Source of the DNA: Ochrobactrum quorumnocens
GTDB lineage: Bacteria; Pseudomonadota; Alphaproteobacteria; Rhizobiales; Rhizobiaceae
Direction: 5' to 3'
DNA length: 64,000 nt
Assembly: GCF_002278035.1 (NCBI RefSeq)
Contig: NZ_CP022604.1
Span: 1 to 64,000, forward strand
Under the pieces are notes generated by a model. The model was not told where the DNA came from. It saw nothing but the letters and a program-made list of their open reading frames with translations, and made no database searches. Below are positions 52,235-57,600 of this stretch, piece by piece. Position 1 is the first letter of the stretch; each line of letters begins with the position of its first letter. Made by a program: the position numbers and the translations under genes.

Positions 52235-52327
52235 AGGCCTGACGGCCCGGTTCCGCGGCTTTTTTCCTCCCTCTCCCCCTTAAAAGCCGCGTGGCGCCCC
52301 GGTTCCCTCCGGGGCGCTTTCATTTTG
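52235..52327 (+). ncRNA. Candidate small RNA with C/U-rich loop (element 1)
   Basis: Two strong hairpins: CGCGGCTTTT / AAAAGCCGCG (52254-52263 with 52282-52291) exposing the 18-base loop with CCTCCCTCTCCCCC, then a terminator GCGCCCCGG / CCGGGGCGC (52294-52302 with 52309-52317) and tail TTTCATTTT. The loop is complementary to GGAGG ribosome-binding sites. Shares TCCGCGGCT and TCATTTTG with element 2 at 55169-55217. No protein is encoded. The 5' end is unknown: it may be cut from the cyo mRNA. Confidence 0.6.
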
Positions 52328-52349: not shown

Positions 52350-53234
52350 TCATCGCTCCAATTGCGCCAGATCTTCCAGCAATCCGGGTCCGAGTGAATT
52401 CCAGCCGAGCCGCTCGCGTGTCAATGTGTTTGACGCCGACATATCTTTGCTGACAAATGCTGTAAGCCAGCCAAAGTGTTCAGCCGCTTCCTGCCCATTA
52501 AGTGATGCCACCGGTAGATTGAGCGCTGCGCCGACGGCCTCAGCAATCGCGCGGAACGCAATGCCTTGCTCGGCTGTGGCATGATAACGCGCGCCCGGTT
52601 CCGCCCGCTCCACTGCAAGCCGGTAGAGGTGCGCAGTGTCATCAATATGGGCTGCCGACCACTGATTGGCGCCTTCGCCGATATAGGCTGAGACCCCGGA
52701 CCCGACCGCAAGCGGGATGAGTTCGCTCACAAGGCCTTGCTTGCGTGTGTCGTGGATTTGCGAAAGCCGCATAACGGATACATTGACGCCGCGTTGCAAC
52801 TGCTCATATCCCGCTAGTTCTGAAGCCACACGTGGGTTGGGATGATGGGGATTGAAGTGACTTTCGACAGCAGGTTCACCAGGAACTGCCGCTCCCATGG
52901 CAGTGGCTGAGGTTATGACGAGCGGGCGCTCAGTCCCTTCAAGCGCAGAGCCAAGGGCTTCGATCACGCGATTATCCTTCGCGCAGTTGGCCTGAAAGTT
53001 CGCGAAGTTATGGTCGAACGCGGTGTGTATGACGGCATCGCATTGAGCAGCACCTCGACGAAGGCTTTCGAGGTCTTCGATATCACCGCGATGTGCTTCT
53101 GCTCCGGCCGCTACGAGCTTTTCAGCGCCAGCATCGGAGCGGGTGAGGCCGAGCACTTCATGGCCCTCCCAGATAAGTTCAGGGATGATATGTGAACCGA
53201 TAAAGCCCGTCGCGCCTGTAAGAAAAATTCGCAT
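52350..53234 (-). CDS. NAD(P)-dependent epimerase/dehydratase family (extended SDR) protein
   Basis: The 294-residue product starts with the nucleotide-binding motif MRIFLTGATGFIGSHIIPEL and has DAVIHTAFDH; the usual YxxxK appears replaced or shifted (AGYEQLQRG), as in many atypical SDRs. Family and substrate cannot be narrowed. It is divergent from an XRE-type regulator, a frequent pairing in proteobacteria in which the regulator represses the oxidoreductase. Confidence 0.87.
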   Translation of the reverse strand: MRIFLTGATGFIGSHIIPELIWEGHEVLGLTRSDAGAEKLVAAGAEAHRGDIEDLESLRRGAAQCDAVIHTAFDHNFANFQANCAKDNRVIEALGSALEGTERPLVITSATAMGAAVPGEPAVESHFNPHHPNPRVASELAGYEQLQRGVNVSVMRLSQIHDTRKQGLVSELIPLAVGSGVSAYIGEGANQWSAAHIDDTAHLYRLAVERAEPGARYHATAEQGIAFRAIAEAVGAALNLPVASLNGQEAAEHFGWLTAFVSKDMSASNTLTRERLGWNSLGPGLLEDLAQLER

Positions 53235-53302
53235 GAAGATGGTCTCCTTGTTGTTCTGGCGACAATCTGCGATGCTTAATCATCCTATTAAAGTAGTGAC
53301 AT

Positions 53303-53318
53303 TATCATAGTATCATAA
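53303..53318 (+). promoter_or_regulatory. Tandem 8-base repeat in the SDR/XRE control region
   Basis: TATCATAG followed at once by TATCATAA, 15 bases before the XRE start, overlapping the likely -10 region. A candidate operator for the divergent regulator. Confidence 0.4.
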
Positions 53319-53332
53319 CTAACAGGCAAACC

Positions 53333-54181
53333 ATGTCGGAAAAGACCAATTCCCTGCTTGGCTCATATCTCAAAGACCGTCGTGCGCGGCTTGATCCGAC
53401 CGCCTTGGGCTTTGCTGCAGGTCGCCGCCGCACGCCCGGGTTAAGGCGTGAGGAGGTAGCGCAGCGCGCCAATATCAGCCCAACATGGTACACTTGGCTT
53501 GAGCAGGGGCGGGGTGGCTCACCCTCGACGGATGTCCTAAATCGGATTGCGGCCGGACTGATGATGACTGAACCGGAGCGCGAACATCTTTTCATGCTTG
53601 CCTTCGGTCATCCTCCCGAAGTGTTTTACAAACGGCCATCAGAAATCACTCCTCGGCTGCAACGTCTGATCGACGCAATGGTAACCAGCCCTGCGATCAT
53701 CAAGACAGCCACATGGGATGTTGTGGCATGGAACCGGGCCGCCGCAATTGTGCTGACAGATTACAGCACTCTGCCGCCGGAAGATCGCAATATTCTCAAA
53801 CGGATCTTTTGCAATTCCGACATCAGGGCCAAACAGGATGGCTGGGGCGAGGTGGCCCGCTTTGTATTGGGGGCATTTCGCGCCGATGCGACACGTGCTG
53901 GAGCGGCATCGGAGGTTACTGAACTGGTCGAGGAACTGTGTCAACAAAGCGCGGAATTTGCAGCTCTTTGGCGTGACAATGACATCGGTGTTTACAGCGA
54001 AGGAACCAAGCGACTTTTGCATCCAAAGCTTGGGCGTTTGGAACTTGAATATTCGGGATTCGCCGTCGACGGACGTCCGGACCTTGGGATGATCGTCTAT
54101 AATCCCGTGTTGCCTTCGGACGCAGATAGGATACGGCGGCTGGTTTTCGCGGGCGCGCAAAGTTTGCCCCAAAATATCTGA
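53333..54181 (+). CDS. XRE-family regulator with MmyB-like ligand-binding domain
   Basis: The 282-residue product has an N-terminal helix-turn-helix (RRTPGLRREEVAQRANIS, then PTWYTWLEQGRG) and a C-terminal MmyB-type domain, which binds fatty-acid-like ligands in a studied homologue. The GLRREEVA pattern is a hallmark of this group. It is divergent from the SDR gene and probably controls it and itself. Confidence 0.9.
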   Translation: MSEKTNSLLGSYLKDRRARLDPTALGFAAGRRRTPGLRREEVAQRANISPTWYTWLEQGRGGSPSTDVLNRIAAGLMMTEPEREHLFMLAFGHPPEVFYKRPSEITPRLQRLIDAMVTSPAIIKTATWDVVAWNRAAAIVLTDYSTLPPEDRNILKRIFCNSDIRAKQDGWGEVARFVLGAFRADATRAGAASEVTELVEELCQQSAEFAALWRDNDIGVYSEGTKRLLHPKLGRLELEYSGFAVDGRPDLGMIVYNPVLPSDADRIRRLVFAGAQSLPQNI

Positions 54182-54416
54182 AGAGCGACCCAATCGGTAG
54201 TTCGAATTATATAAGTAAATAAATGTAAAATTTTAATCAATTTATTGTAAACACAGCATATATATCGCATATAACTAAGTATAGATTATTCTAATATAAG
54301 TCATGCATTTACCACTATTGTGTATGTTGTTTGCACTGTGAGCAATATTGTTATAGTGTGCATCGTGTTTGATAATTAATTCGTCTCTATTTGCTCTGTG
54401 TTTTGGAGAATTTGTG
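54182..54416 (+). promoter_or_regulatory. AT-rich upstream region of the SH3 gene
   Basis: A 235-base stretch far richer in A+T than its surroundings, with many TATA-like runs. A possible promoter is TTTGCA ... TATAGT near 54330-54357. The ribosome-binding site GGAGA lies at 54405-54409. No gene is visible. Confidence 0.4.
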
Positions 54417-55112
54417 ATGTCTTTATTTAAGAATATGCTTGTAAAAAACCACCTTGTTGGTATGGCAATTGTAGCCTCAGCACTCTTCACTCCCGCAATT
54501 GCTTCTGCGGCTACGGCTTATATATCCGCTTCAGTCAATGTTCGCTCCGGCCCAGGTGCAAATTACGGACGGCTTGCAACACTTCCTGCAGGTATTACGG
54601 TTAATGCCGGTTCCTGCCGCAACGGCTGGTGCCAGATTTATAATGGCAGCAGTGTTGGTTTCGTCTCGGCGCGTTATGTCCGCTTTGGTTCGTATAATGG
54701 CGCTTACGCTGCCCCATCCAACACGACCGTAATCGTCAGTAATGACGGATACGATAATGGTTGGGCTCCCGGCTTCGGACTCGGTCTCGGTTTAGGTTGG
54801 GCATCGGGCGGTGGCTATTGGGGACCAGGCTGGGGTGGTGGTCCCGGCTGGCGCGGTGGCCCGAATTACATCAATGGTTGTATCGGTCGCAACTGCCAGT
54901 CCAATCGTGGCGGTGGACGCAATGGCTGGAACCCACGTTGGGGGCATGGCCCGCAATGGGGCGGCAGAGGATGGCCGAACGGCGGACGTGGAAACTGGGG
55001 GCCTGGTCGGGGTGTAGGACCACGTTTCACGTCTGGCCCAGATCACTTCGGTGGTTTCGGCGGCGGTGGCATGCATTTTGGAAACATGCGGCCAATGCAC
55101 GCCGGGCGTTAA
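54417..55112 (+). CDS. Secreted SH3-domain protein with Gly/Trp-rich tail
   Basis: The 231-residue protein has a Sec signal peptide (cleavage likely after ASA), a bacterial SH3 domain (YISASVNVRSGPGANYGRLA ... NGWCQIYNGSSVGFVSARYV, residues 37-93) and a tail of about 120 residues rich in Gly, Trp, Arg and Asn. SH3b domains often bind the cell wall. The tail could pack at the envelope surface. The ATG at 54417 has GGAGA seven bases upstream; a start 16 codons earlier lacks one. The upstream DNA is AT-rich, and a small-RNA candidate lies just downstream. Confidence 0.85.
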   Translation: MSLFKNMLVKNHLVGMAIVASALFTPAIASAATAYISASVNVRSGPGANYGRLATLPAGITVNAGSCRNGWCQIYNGSSVGFVSARYVRFGSYNGAYAAPSNTTVIVSNDGYDNGWAPGFGLGLGLGWASGGGYWGPGWGGGPGWRGGPNYINGCIGRNCQSNRGGGRNGWNPRWGHGPQWGGRGWPNGGRGNWGPGRGVGPRFTSGPDHFGGFGGGGMHFGNMRPMHAGR

Positions 55113-55132: not shown

Positions 55133-55217
55133 ATATCAGGTCGTTATCCTCCCCTCCTGATGACCTGATCCGCGGCTCGCTGGACTCCCCTCCCTCCAGC
55201 GGGCCGCAATCATTTTG
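55133..55217 (+). ncRNA. Candidate small RNA with C/U-rich loops (element 2)
   Basis: Hairpin 1 is ATCAGGTC / GACCTGAT (55135-55142 with 55162-55169), its loop holding CCTCCCCTCC. Hairpin 2 is a 12-bp stem (55172-55183 with 55196-55207) with loop ACTCCCCTCCCT, followed by the tail AATCATTTTG. Both loops can pair with GGAGG-type ribosome-binding sites. Shares TCCGCGGCT and TCATTTTG with element 1 at 52252-52327. It begins about 20 bases after the SH3 stop, so it may be a processed 3' untranslated RNA or have its own promoter. Confidence 0.6.
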
Positions 55218-55240: not shown

Positions 55241-55344
55241 GAGCGCATCTTATCCGAAAAGTGTGAAGCGGTTTTCGGATAAGATGCGCGTAGAAAAATG
55301 ATTAGCGAGCCGATTTGGTCCGGTCAGATCGAAACGCATTCTAG
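55241..55344. repeat. Composite intergenic repeat, best-preserved copy
   Basis: Module A has perfect 18-base arms, GCGCATCTTATCCGAAAA (55243-55260) and its complement (55272-55289), around GTGTGAAGCGG. Module B (to 55344, ending CTAG) is more diverged. Confidence 0.85.
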
Positions 55345-55632: not shown

Positions 55633-57600
55633 ATGACTTGGAGTAACAGGACGATACAGGGAAGAAGTCTCATTGTGCTCGCGCTCGCGGTGCAATTTGC
55701 TTCAATGACGGTGTCGCCTGCATTGGCGTTCGAAATTTTTGGCGTCCGTCTTTGGGGTAAAGAGAAGACGGAAGATGCCGATGCGGTCATCTCTGATCCG
55801 AAACACTATTCAGTGAATGTAGAAGCGACAGGCAGTCGAAAGAATGCCGACGGCAGCGATGCGGATTTGAAATCTGTTATTGAAGGCGCATCCGGTCTGG
55901 TTTCAGACGAGGATAAGCCCGCCTCAGGTTCCGCTGGACTGCTTGCCAAGGCACGCGGTGATTACCGCCGTATCCTGTCGTCGCTTTATGGCGAAGGGCG
56001 CTATGGCGGCACGATTTCCCTCAAGGTTGATGGACGCGAAGCCAACGACATTCCCGTAGATGCGGATATTCCCGACAATGCCAAAATCGATATTTCAGTC
56101 GATCCCGGTCCGCAGTTTTTGTTCTCGCGTACGGCAATTTCCAATATCGCGCCACCACCTGTCGATAAGAAAGACAAGGTGCAATCGCCTGAAGAAGCAG
56201 GTTTCGCACCGGGCAAAGTTGCACGTTCCGGTACAATCCTGAAAGCTGAACGTCTCGCGGTTGAAGCGTGGCGTCAGCAAGGCTATGCGAAAGCCAAGGT
56301 GACAGGCGAAGATATCGTCGCCGATCACGATGGAAACACGCTTGCAGCCGACGTATCACTCGATCCTGGTCGCAAGGCACATTATGGCCCTGTAAGCGTG
56401 GTGGGTACTGCGCGTATGGACCCGCAATTCATCGCCTGGATGACAGGATTGAAACCGGGGCAGGAATATGATCCAGACGATATTGAGAAGGCGAAGAAGC
56501 GTCTTGGACGCATGGAAGTCTTCCGTGCAATGAATTTTGAGGAAGCCGAGCAGATTGAACCGGATGGCAATCTGCCGATGACGCTCAATGTTCAGGAGCG
56601 CAAACCACGCCGCTTTGGCTTTGGTGCTGAATATTCGACGCTCGATGGTTTTGGTGTGACAGGATATTGGATGCATCGCAACCTGTTTGGCAAAGGCGAG
56701 CGTCTGCGCTTTGATGCCAAGGTCAGCGGTGTCGGTGGCTCGCAGGACAACTCGTTCGATCCGGCCAACTTCACCTATATGGTTGGCACAAGCTTCACGA
56801 AGCCGGGCGTTTTCACACCGGATACGGATTTCGTGGCCGCACTTGATGCCAAGCGCGAAGTGCTCGACGCTTATACCGAAACCTCGATCAACGCGAAAAC
56901 CGGGTTTACGCAGATTTTCAGCGATGAGCTTTCAGGTGCGCTTTATGCCAAGGCGAGCCATGGCCGCTTCGATGACGATTATTTCGGAACACGCGAATTC
57001 ACGACCGGCGGGCTTGAAGGCAATCTCCTTTATGATGGCCGTAACAACAAGCCTGATCCAAGCTCCGGCGTTTATCTCGAAGGCAATGTTCAACCGTTCT
57101 ACGAATTCCAGCGGGGCAATTTTGCGACCCGTTTCACCGCGGAAGGCCGTGCCTATTACGGTTTTGGCGCAACAAACCGCGTGATTCTTGCAGGCCGCGT
57201 GAAAGTTGGTTCTATCGTCGGTGCGGAGATTGAAGATCTCCCACCGAATCAGCTCTTCCTTGCAGGCGGCGGCGGTTCAATCCGTGGCTATTCCTATCGT
57301 GGCGTTGGTGTTGAAACATCGACTGGTGACGTTATCGGTGGTCGCTCTCTGGTCGAGGCATCGGGCGAAGTACGCACACGCGTAACCGATTCCATCGGTG
57401 TGGTCGGCTTTGTCGATGCGGGCTATGTGGGCGAGCAATCCTATCCAGATTTTTCGGAAGAAATGCGTATCGGCGCGGGCTTGGGTCTGCGCTACCTGAC
57501 GGGGCTTGGACCTATCCGTCTTGACGTCGCACTTCCACTTAACCGCCGCTCGGGCGATCCGAGCTATGCGTTCTACGTAGGCATAGGACAGGCGTTTTGA
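55633..57600 (+). CDS. tamA: Autotransporter assembly outer-membrane protein TamA
   Basis: TamA is a BamA-like outer-membrane barrel that works with inner-membrane-anchored TamB. The 655-residue product has a signal peptide (cleavage likely after ALA), three POTRA domains (about residues 60-310) and a C-terminal barrel with LFLAGGGGSIRGYSYRGVG, the conserved RGY motif of Omp85 proteins, and a C-terminal aromatic residue (GIGQAF). tamB starts inside its stop codon (TTGA), so the two are translationally coupled. Confidence 0.94.
   Translation: MTWSNRTIQGRSLIVLALAVQFASMTVSPALAFEIFGVRLWGKEKTEDADAVISDPKHYSVNVEATGSRKNADGSDADLKSVIEGASGLVSDEDKPASGSAGLLAKARGDYRRILSSLYGEGRYGGTISLKVDGREANDIPVDADIPDNAKIDISVDPGPQFLFSRTAISNIAPPPVDKKDKVQSPEEAGFAPGKVARSGTILKAERLAVEAWRQQGYAKAKVTGEDIVADHDGNTLAADVSLDPGRKAHYGPVSVVGTARMDPQFIAWMTGLKPGQEYDPDDIEKAKKRLGRMEVFRAMNFEEAEQIEPDGNLPMTLNVQERKPRRFGFGAEYSTLDGFGVTGYWMHRNLFGKGERLRFDAKVSGVGGSQDNSFDPANFTYMVGTSFTKPGVFTPDTDFVAALDAKREVLDAYTETSINAKTGFTQIFSDELSGALYAKASHGRFDDDYFGTREFTTGGLEGNLLYDGRNNKPDPSSGVYLEGNVQPFYEFQRGNFATRFTAEGRAYYGFGATNRVILAGRVKVGSIVGAEIEDLPPNQLFLAGGGGSIRGYSYRGVGVETSTGDVIGGRSLVEASGEVRTRVTDSIGVVGFVDAGYVGEQSYPDFSEEMRIGAGLGLRYLTGLGPIRLDVALPLNRRSGDPSYAFYVGIGQAF

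What the first reader, a model, noticed from the sequence alone, without database searches (positions are those of the whole stretch)
55133..55217. Second, apparently paralogous C/U-loop RNA after the SH3 gene
Two hairpins, with loops containing CCTCCCCTCC and ACTCCCCTCCCT, lie just after a secreted SH3 protein gene. The second stem begins with TCCGCGGCT and the tail is TCATTTTG, both identical to element 1 nearly 3 kb away. Shared stem start, loop type and tail argue for common descent rather than chance. Two such loops in one RNA could act on many mRNAs by blocking ribosome-binding sites.
Basis: partly seen in the sequence, partly recalled or inferred. Interest (0 to 1): 0.72.

Follow-up and report, generated by a model that had tools for sequence, protein, structure and literature searches.

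The report
Conserved ribosome-site-mimic hairpins after SH3 gene
Just behind a gene for a secreted SH3-domain protein, this Brucella/Ochrobactrum-group genome carries two RNA hairpins, the first of which keeps an exposed sequence able to cover ribosome-binding sites in the related species that have the gene; it looks like a gene-attached relative of a known class of regulatory small RNAs.

Summary
The two hairpins are real (55135-55169, 55172-55207, + strand, tail to 55217) and form a conserved structured RNA. A covariance model found one copy in each of 26 of 35 genus genomes, between an SH3_3 gene and tamA in 26 of 26. Stem 2 shows compensatory changes; G-U pairs favour the + strand. In the other nine genomes, one has SH3 plus a diverged hairpin pair; eight have neither at this site. 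Loop 1 varies but stays pyrimidine with an anti-Shine-Dalgarno core (CCTCC in 25 of 27 folded loops). Hairpin 2 looks mainly like a terminator. The genome also has six Rfam ar14 arrays, two just behind DUF1127 genes. The element scores 33.7 bits for ar14 (cut-off 58.8): it resembles that kind but fails membership. Best reading: a 3'-UTR-borne, ar14/CcsR-like regulator ending the SH3 mRNA. Kinship with element 1 is undecided: the model matches element 1 weakly (30.2 bits), somewhat above the ar14 arrays (23-25), but the shared 9-mer and tail are lineage-specific. Transcription and targets are untested.

The parts
55135..55169 (+). Hairpin 1: 12-pair stem, loop TCCTCCCCTCC (anti-Shine-Dalgarno type)
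   Evidence: Fold; conserved structure; loop survey in 27 loci
55172..55207 (+). Hairpin 2: 13-pair GC-rich stem, loop CTCCCCTCCC; probable terminator stem
   Evidence: Fold; 8 of 13 pairs with two-sided changes; loop without CCTCC in 13 of 27 loci
55208..55217 (+). Weak T-rich tail (AATCATTTTG)
   Evidence: At least 5 T in the 12 bases after stem 2 in 16 of 26 loci
54417..55112 (+). Host gene: SH3_3-domain, glycine-rich protein with a signal-like N-terminus, 231 aa
   Evidence: Pfam PF08239 48.3 bits; upstream of the element in 26 of 26 loci
55633..57600 (+). Downstream neighbour, tamA-like (POTRA + Omp85)
   Evidence: Pfam; downstream in 26 of 26 loci
52254..52318 (+). Element 1, after the cytochrome oxidase genes: C/U-loop hairpin plus terminator hairpin; compared, not part of the unit

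Best explanation
A 3'-UTR-borne regulatory RNA module. The SH3 gene is transcribed; its mRNA ends in hairpin 1, whose single-stranded pyrimidine loop copies the 16S anti-Shine-Dalgarno sequence, and hairpin 2, which with its T-rich tail ends the transcript. The 3' fragment (about 80 nt) is cut out or stays attached, and loop 1 pairs with GGAGG-type ribosome-binding sites of mRNAs in trans (possibly its own) and lowers their translation, as ar14/NfeR1 does. Shown here: structure, selection at the RNA level, strand, loop conservation, linkage to the SH3 gene. Inferred: transcription, processing, targets, repression.
For: 97.5% of pair cells are standard and 9 pairs have two-sided changes, 0 of 500 shuffles as high for either; slid controls pair 19-45%. 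G-U cells 35 against A-C cells 3 of 360. One model hit in each of 26 of 35 genus genomes; SH3 upstream and tamA downstream in 26 of 26. A 27th genome, G021, has SH3 followed by a hairpin with a different stem and loop CTTCCTCCTCCC, then a hairpin with loop TAAAAA and a T tract (33.2 bits to R1): stem and loop 2 changed, the aSD loop stayed. The 17 distinct forms of loop 1 hold CCTCC in 15 (shuffled mean 8.8; 10 of 5000 as high) and CCTCCTCCC in 8 (0.7; 0 of 5000). True ar14 arrays with that loop motif exist in the genome. NfeR1 (ar14) silences ntrB through such loops (PMC10746234, passages); CcsR1-4 are cut from a 3' UTR (PMC8625941, passages).
Against: No transcript data. The window's loops lack the exact CCUCCUCCC and the ar14 score is below the cut-off. 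The count of further pair types is not clearly above shuffles (19 against 16.8; 32 of 500 as high). The reversed motif CCCTCCTCC is in 6 of the 17 loop forms, against 8 for CCTCCTCCC, so the exact order is not firmly selected. The + strand folds better than - in only 19 of 26. The pairing core is short and fits most SD sequences. Hits in the family are few: 3 of 199, all of the genus, with stricter filters and few candidates scored per genome.
Confidence: 0.6

Rival explanations
1. Only the 3' end of the SH3 mRNA: hairpin 2 is an intrinsic terminator and hairpin 1 a stabilising stem; the C/U loops have no partner.
For: Hairpin 2 is GC-rich; the 12 bases after it hold at least 5 T in 16 of 26 loci; its loop holds CCTCC in only 14 of 27. 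It lies directly behind the SH3 gene.
Against: A stabilising stem does not need a loop that is 98% pyrimidine with CCTCC in 15 of 17 distinct forms. Elsewhere in the sampled genome such loops are at chance level. The own tail is a weak T tract; the consensus scan, limited to loops of 3-8, could not list it.
Confidence: 0.25
2. cis feedback: loop 1 pairs with the SD of its own SH3 mRNA and limits SH3 synthesis, without a free small RNA.
For: GGAG lies at SD distance before the SH3 start in the window and in the 22 upstream regions aligned, complementary to CTCC; linkage to the SH3 gene is tight.
Against: GGAG is a generic SD, so the match says little; covariation between loop and SD was not tested.
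Confidence: 0.1
3. The opposite strand is the active one: GGAGG-loop hairpins that bind a CsrA/RsmA-like protein.
For: The reverse complement has GGA-rich loops; a sub-threshold PrrB/RsmZ match (18.6 bits, cut-off 44) covers element 1 on the - strand.
Against: G-U cells outnumber A-C cells 35 to 3; gene order and T-rich tails lie on the + strand.
Confidence: 0.03

Closest known systems
Rfam RF02344 ar14 (SmelA075/NfeR1; the 'cuckoo' group, that name recalled and seen in a reference list)
   Same: Hairpins with pyrimidine loops; CCUCCUCCC in loop 1 of 13 of 27 loci; ar14 is the best match on the element apart from a repeat artefact
   Different: Two hairpins, not three; own loop CCTCCCCTCC; 33.7 bits against a cut-off of 58.8; behind an SH3 gene
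CcsR1-4 of Rhodobacter (3' UTR of the DUF1127 gene ccaF1)
   Same: aSD-motif hairpins carried behind a protein gene (PMC10253847, PMC8625941, passages; a two-hairpin form RS0680a in PMC3927594 section 2.7; that RS0680a is CcsR1 is recalled)
   Different: Host gene is SH3_3, not DUF1127; CcsR1 model not listed for the window at E <= 5; one orthologue (L079) 28.7 bits against a cut-off of 65.3
Double-hairpin CU-rich RNAs RF02278 of Burkholderia, and NmsR of Neisseria
   Same: Two hairpins with CU-rich unpaired stretches predicted to cover ribosome-binding sites (PMC5688073, passages)
   Different: RF02278 not listed; other class of bacteria

Membership tests
ar14 (RF02344) | Score at or above the curated cut-off of 58.8 bits | tested here: not met
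   33.7 bits in the window; best of 20 loci given: 37.8. Six other loci of the same genome score 77.8-87
ar14 (RF02344) | Three hairpins, each with CCUCCUCCC | tested here: not met
   Two hairpins; the exact motif is absent in the window copy but in loop 1 of 13 of 27 loci
ar14 / aSD-loop RNAs | Silences mRNAs by loop pairing at the SD | not testable with these tools
   Shown for NfeR1 in PMC10746234 (passages); not for this RNA
CcsR / CIN1 locus | Lies behind a DUF1127 gene | tested here: not met
   Host gene is SH3_3; the seven DUF1127 matches lie elsewhere, two just before ar14 arrays
CcsR1 (RF02791) | Score at or above 65.3 bits | tested here: not met
   Not listed for the window at E <= 5
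BASRCI408 (RF02599) | Match over the hairpins themselves | tested here: not met
   48.8 bits against a cut-off of 398; the confident columns lie in the palindrome downstream
Intrinsic terminator (hairpin 2) | GC-rich stem followed by a T tract | tested here: inconclusive
   13-pair stem; 6 T in the next 12 bases; at least 5 T in 16 of 26 loci; the scan does not allow a 10-nt loop
Paralogue of element 1 | Shared stem start and tail kept in both elements across the genus | tested here: not met
   9-mer in both in 4 of 22, tail in both in 3 of 22 genomes
Paralogue of element 1 | Profile similarity beyond that to other C/U-loop RNAs | tested here: inconclusive
   30.2 bits for element 1 of the window against 23-25 for ar14 arrays; about 20-31 bits in 22 of 30 element-1 loci, lower or unlisted in the rest

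The most novel reading that the evidence does not exclude
Anti-Shine-Dalgarno hairpins of the ar14/CcsR kind can be attached to the 3' ends of unrelated genes. Here one became tied to a secreted SH3 protein between the cyo operon and tamA, so that expression of an envelope protein releases a broad translation damper; gene and RNA are gained or lost as one unit, and element 1 behind the oxidase genes may be a second, distantly related case.
Probability: 0.35. Interest if true: 0.6.

Novelty: new variant of a known kind. Interest (0 to 1): 0.45.

Why it matters
It adds a host-gene-linked RNA to the aSD-loop RNAs, described so far (in the papers seen) from arrays and DUF1127 loci. It shows a loop keeping the anti-SD core while stem and terminator loop change, and gives a clear site (SH3 present or absent) at which gain or loss of such an RNA can be followed.

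Tried and rejected
Rejected: identity with the Brucella sRNA BASRCI408, whose match is carried by a palindrome. Disfavoured: minus-strand reading. Mended on checking: score only part of their first-look candidates; one search listed element 2 alone in the own genome at E <= 10, but a direct search of the window finds element 1 at 30.2 bits, so my earlier 'not related' became 'undecided'. Led nowhere: aSD hairpins behind SH3 homologues outside the genus; 27 loci examined of 44 genomes with a match; 4 had a hairpin with CTCC or CCTC in a loop somewhere downstream, none with CCTCC. SH3 paralogues elsewhere in the genus: 10 loci from 9 genomes read; none has a long C/U loop, but 3 have a hairpin with the 6-nt loop GCCTCC behind the match. 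Other CTCCCCTCC sites in the genome: 13 in all, 2 of them this element; the other 11 are not in C/U-loop hairpins by folding. Promoter scan: 5 sites against 3.2 expected. Literature: in searches no title or abstract start listed names this SH3-linked element; only listings were seen except for the passages and the one section cited. The cuckoo paper and the CcaF1 NAR paper are not held.

Full report
What is there. Window 55135-55207 (+) folds into two adjacent uninterrupted hairpins, MFE -41.4 kcal/mol, z = -7.95, 0 of 200 shuffles as stable. Loop 1 is TCCTCCCCTCC, loop 2 CTCCCCTCCC. They start 22 bases after the stop codon of a 231-aa SH3_3 protein gene. About 420 bases further on is a POTRA/Omp85 (tamA-like) gene. 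Named records with a close SH3 gene are Brucella of the former Ochrobactrum group, such as B. pituitosa, B. rhizosphaerae and B. grignonensis (13 loci, two of them distant Xanthobacteraceae).

Conservation. blastn with 171 bases matched 19 of 60 genomes, own included, all of the genus; one (G031) matched only through the downstream palindrome. The other 18 copies were aligned. On 15 distinct rows and 24 pairs, 97.5% of cells are standard pairs and 9 pairs carry two-sided changes, 0 of 500 shuffles reaching either value; further pair types are less clear (32 of 500 as high). Sliding the partner drops pairing to 19-45%. Stem 1 is nearly invariant (1 pair with a two-sided change); 8 of the 9 such pairs are in stem 2. 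G-U cells number 35 and A-C cells 3 of 360, which puts the RNA on the + strand; folding energy favours + in 19 of 26. The covariance model R1 hits once in each of 26 of 35 genus genomes, own included, among the candidates scored, and in 3 of 199 family genomes, all of the genus, with stricter filters.

Linkage. In 26 of 26 the SH3 gene is upstream and tamA downstream; in G001 the SH3 match is in three pieces. The nine other genomes were read around element 1 (eight, G016). G021 has SH3 and behind it a hairpin with a different stem and loop CTTCCTCCTCCC, then a hairpin with loop TAAAAA and a T tract; R1 gives it 33.2 bits. Seven run from element 1 to tamA without SH3 between, and G031 showed neither gene within 1.5 kb. 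In these eight the scan saw no C/U-loop hairpin besides element 1. So at this site 27 of 27 genomes with SH3 have an aSD-loop hairpin and 0 of 8 without. SH3 paralogues elsewhere (10 loci in 9 genomes) have no long C/U loop behind them; three have a hairpin with loop GCCTCC.

Loops. Over the 27 loci the folded loop 1 contains CCTCC in 25 and CCTCCTCCC in 13; loop 2 contains CCTCC in 14. In the two exceptions (G002, G005) CCTCC lies in the tract but partly outside the folded loop. The 12 bases after stem 2 hold at least 5 T in 16 of 26. The 17 distinct loop-1 forms hold CCTCC in 15 against 8.8 expected from shuffled letters (10 of 5000 as high) and CCTCCTCCC in 8 against 0.7 (0 of 5000); the reversed motif CCCTCCTCC is in 6, so the exact order is less sure. 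Related loops are not independent, so these figures are indicative. I read hairpin 1 as the acting part and hairpin 2 as mainly the terminator.

Family context in the same genome. CCTCCTCCC occurs 37 times, the reversed motif 39 times, so the total is not enriched, but 18 of the 37 fall in six clusters of 2-4. These fold into hairpin arrays with loops such as ACTCCTCCTCCCA, and all six score 77.8-87 bits for Rfam ar14. Two lie just behind DUF1127 genes (C3:917 kb, C2:226 kb), like the CcsR/CIN1 loci of PMC10253847 (passages). The window element scores 33.7 bits for ar14 and lacks three hairpins and the exact motif, so it is not filed as a member. PMC3927594 section 2.7 (read) describes RNAs with three and four CCUCCUCCC-loop hairpins, variable stems and several copies per genome. 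PMC10746234 (passages) shows NfeR1 silencing ntrB through such loops.

Element 1. It is conserved (31 of 35 genus genomes), with CCTCCCTCTC in the loop of 28 of 30 loci read and a separate terminator hairpin. Kinship with element 2 is undecided. R1 matches element 1 of the window at 30.2 bits (E 0.0015 in 100 kb) and element 1 at about 20-31 bits in 22 of 30 loci (one more, G016, at 21.7), the rest being lower or unlisted, whereas 13 x 20 kb of other own sequence reached 11.8 at best. The whole-genome search had not listed it, as it scored 150 of 2175 candidates. But ar14 arrays reach 23-25 bits and the reverse strand of element 2 orthologues up to 24. The 9-mer is in both elements in 4 of 22 genomes, the tail in 3 of 22; unmasked alignments nevertheless beat all but 6 or fewer of 300 shuffles in 9 of 22. 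Masked, 17 nt at the terminator end align, 19 of 2000 shuffles as good; unmasked 13 of 2000. TCCGCGGCT...CTCCC occurs only at these two places in the genome, reversed control none. I would put common descent of the two at about 0.3, raised from near 0.1.

Background. With stem >= 9, at least 4 G-C pairs and a loop of at least 8 bases, 80% pyrimidine with CTCC, 324 kb on both strands gave 4 hairpins, three of them elements 1 and 2. Behind 27 SH3 homologues outside the genus no CCTCC-loop hairpin was found.

Shown and inferred. Shown: structure, RNA-level selection, orientation, loop conservation, linkage. Inferred: that it is transcribed from the SH3 promoter, processed or not, and that loop 1 blocks ribosome-binding sites. 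No transcript data were available.

Noticed in passing
window 52254-52318: Element 1 behind the cytochrome oxidase genes: CCTCCCTCTC in the loop of 28 of 30 genus loci; best Rfam match is Burkholderia ncS54, 27.6 bits, below its cut-off of 43.
   Followed up: partly
window 55243-55289: Exact 18-bp inverted repeat, part of a dispersed repeat; it carries the Rfam BASRCI408 match.
   Followed up: partly
window 54307-54335: Conserved block (TTTACCA, TATT and GTTTGC) about 80-110 bases upstream of the SH3 start in most of 22 aligned orthologues, perhaps promoter or regulator site.
   Followed up: no
L173-L178 (own genome): Six ar14 arrays above the cut-off; a group II intron match (55.1 bits, cut-off 40) lies beside one of them (L176, 1126-1208).
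   Followed up: partly
L226, L227, L228: A second SH3_3-like gene in three genus genomes is followed by a hairpin with a CTCCTGACA stem and loop GCCTCC; perhaps another aSD-like loop.
   Followed up: no
window 52350-54181: An epimerase-like gene (function recalled from its sequence) and a MmyB-like regulator gene lie between element 1 and the SH3 gene; several relatives have only about 1 kb between the elements, so this may be an insertion.
   Followed up: no
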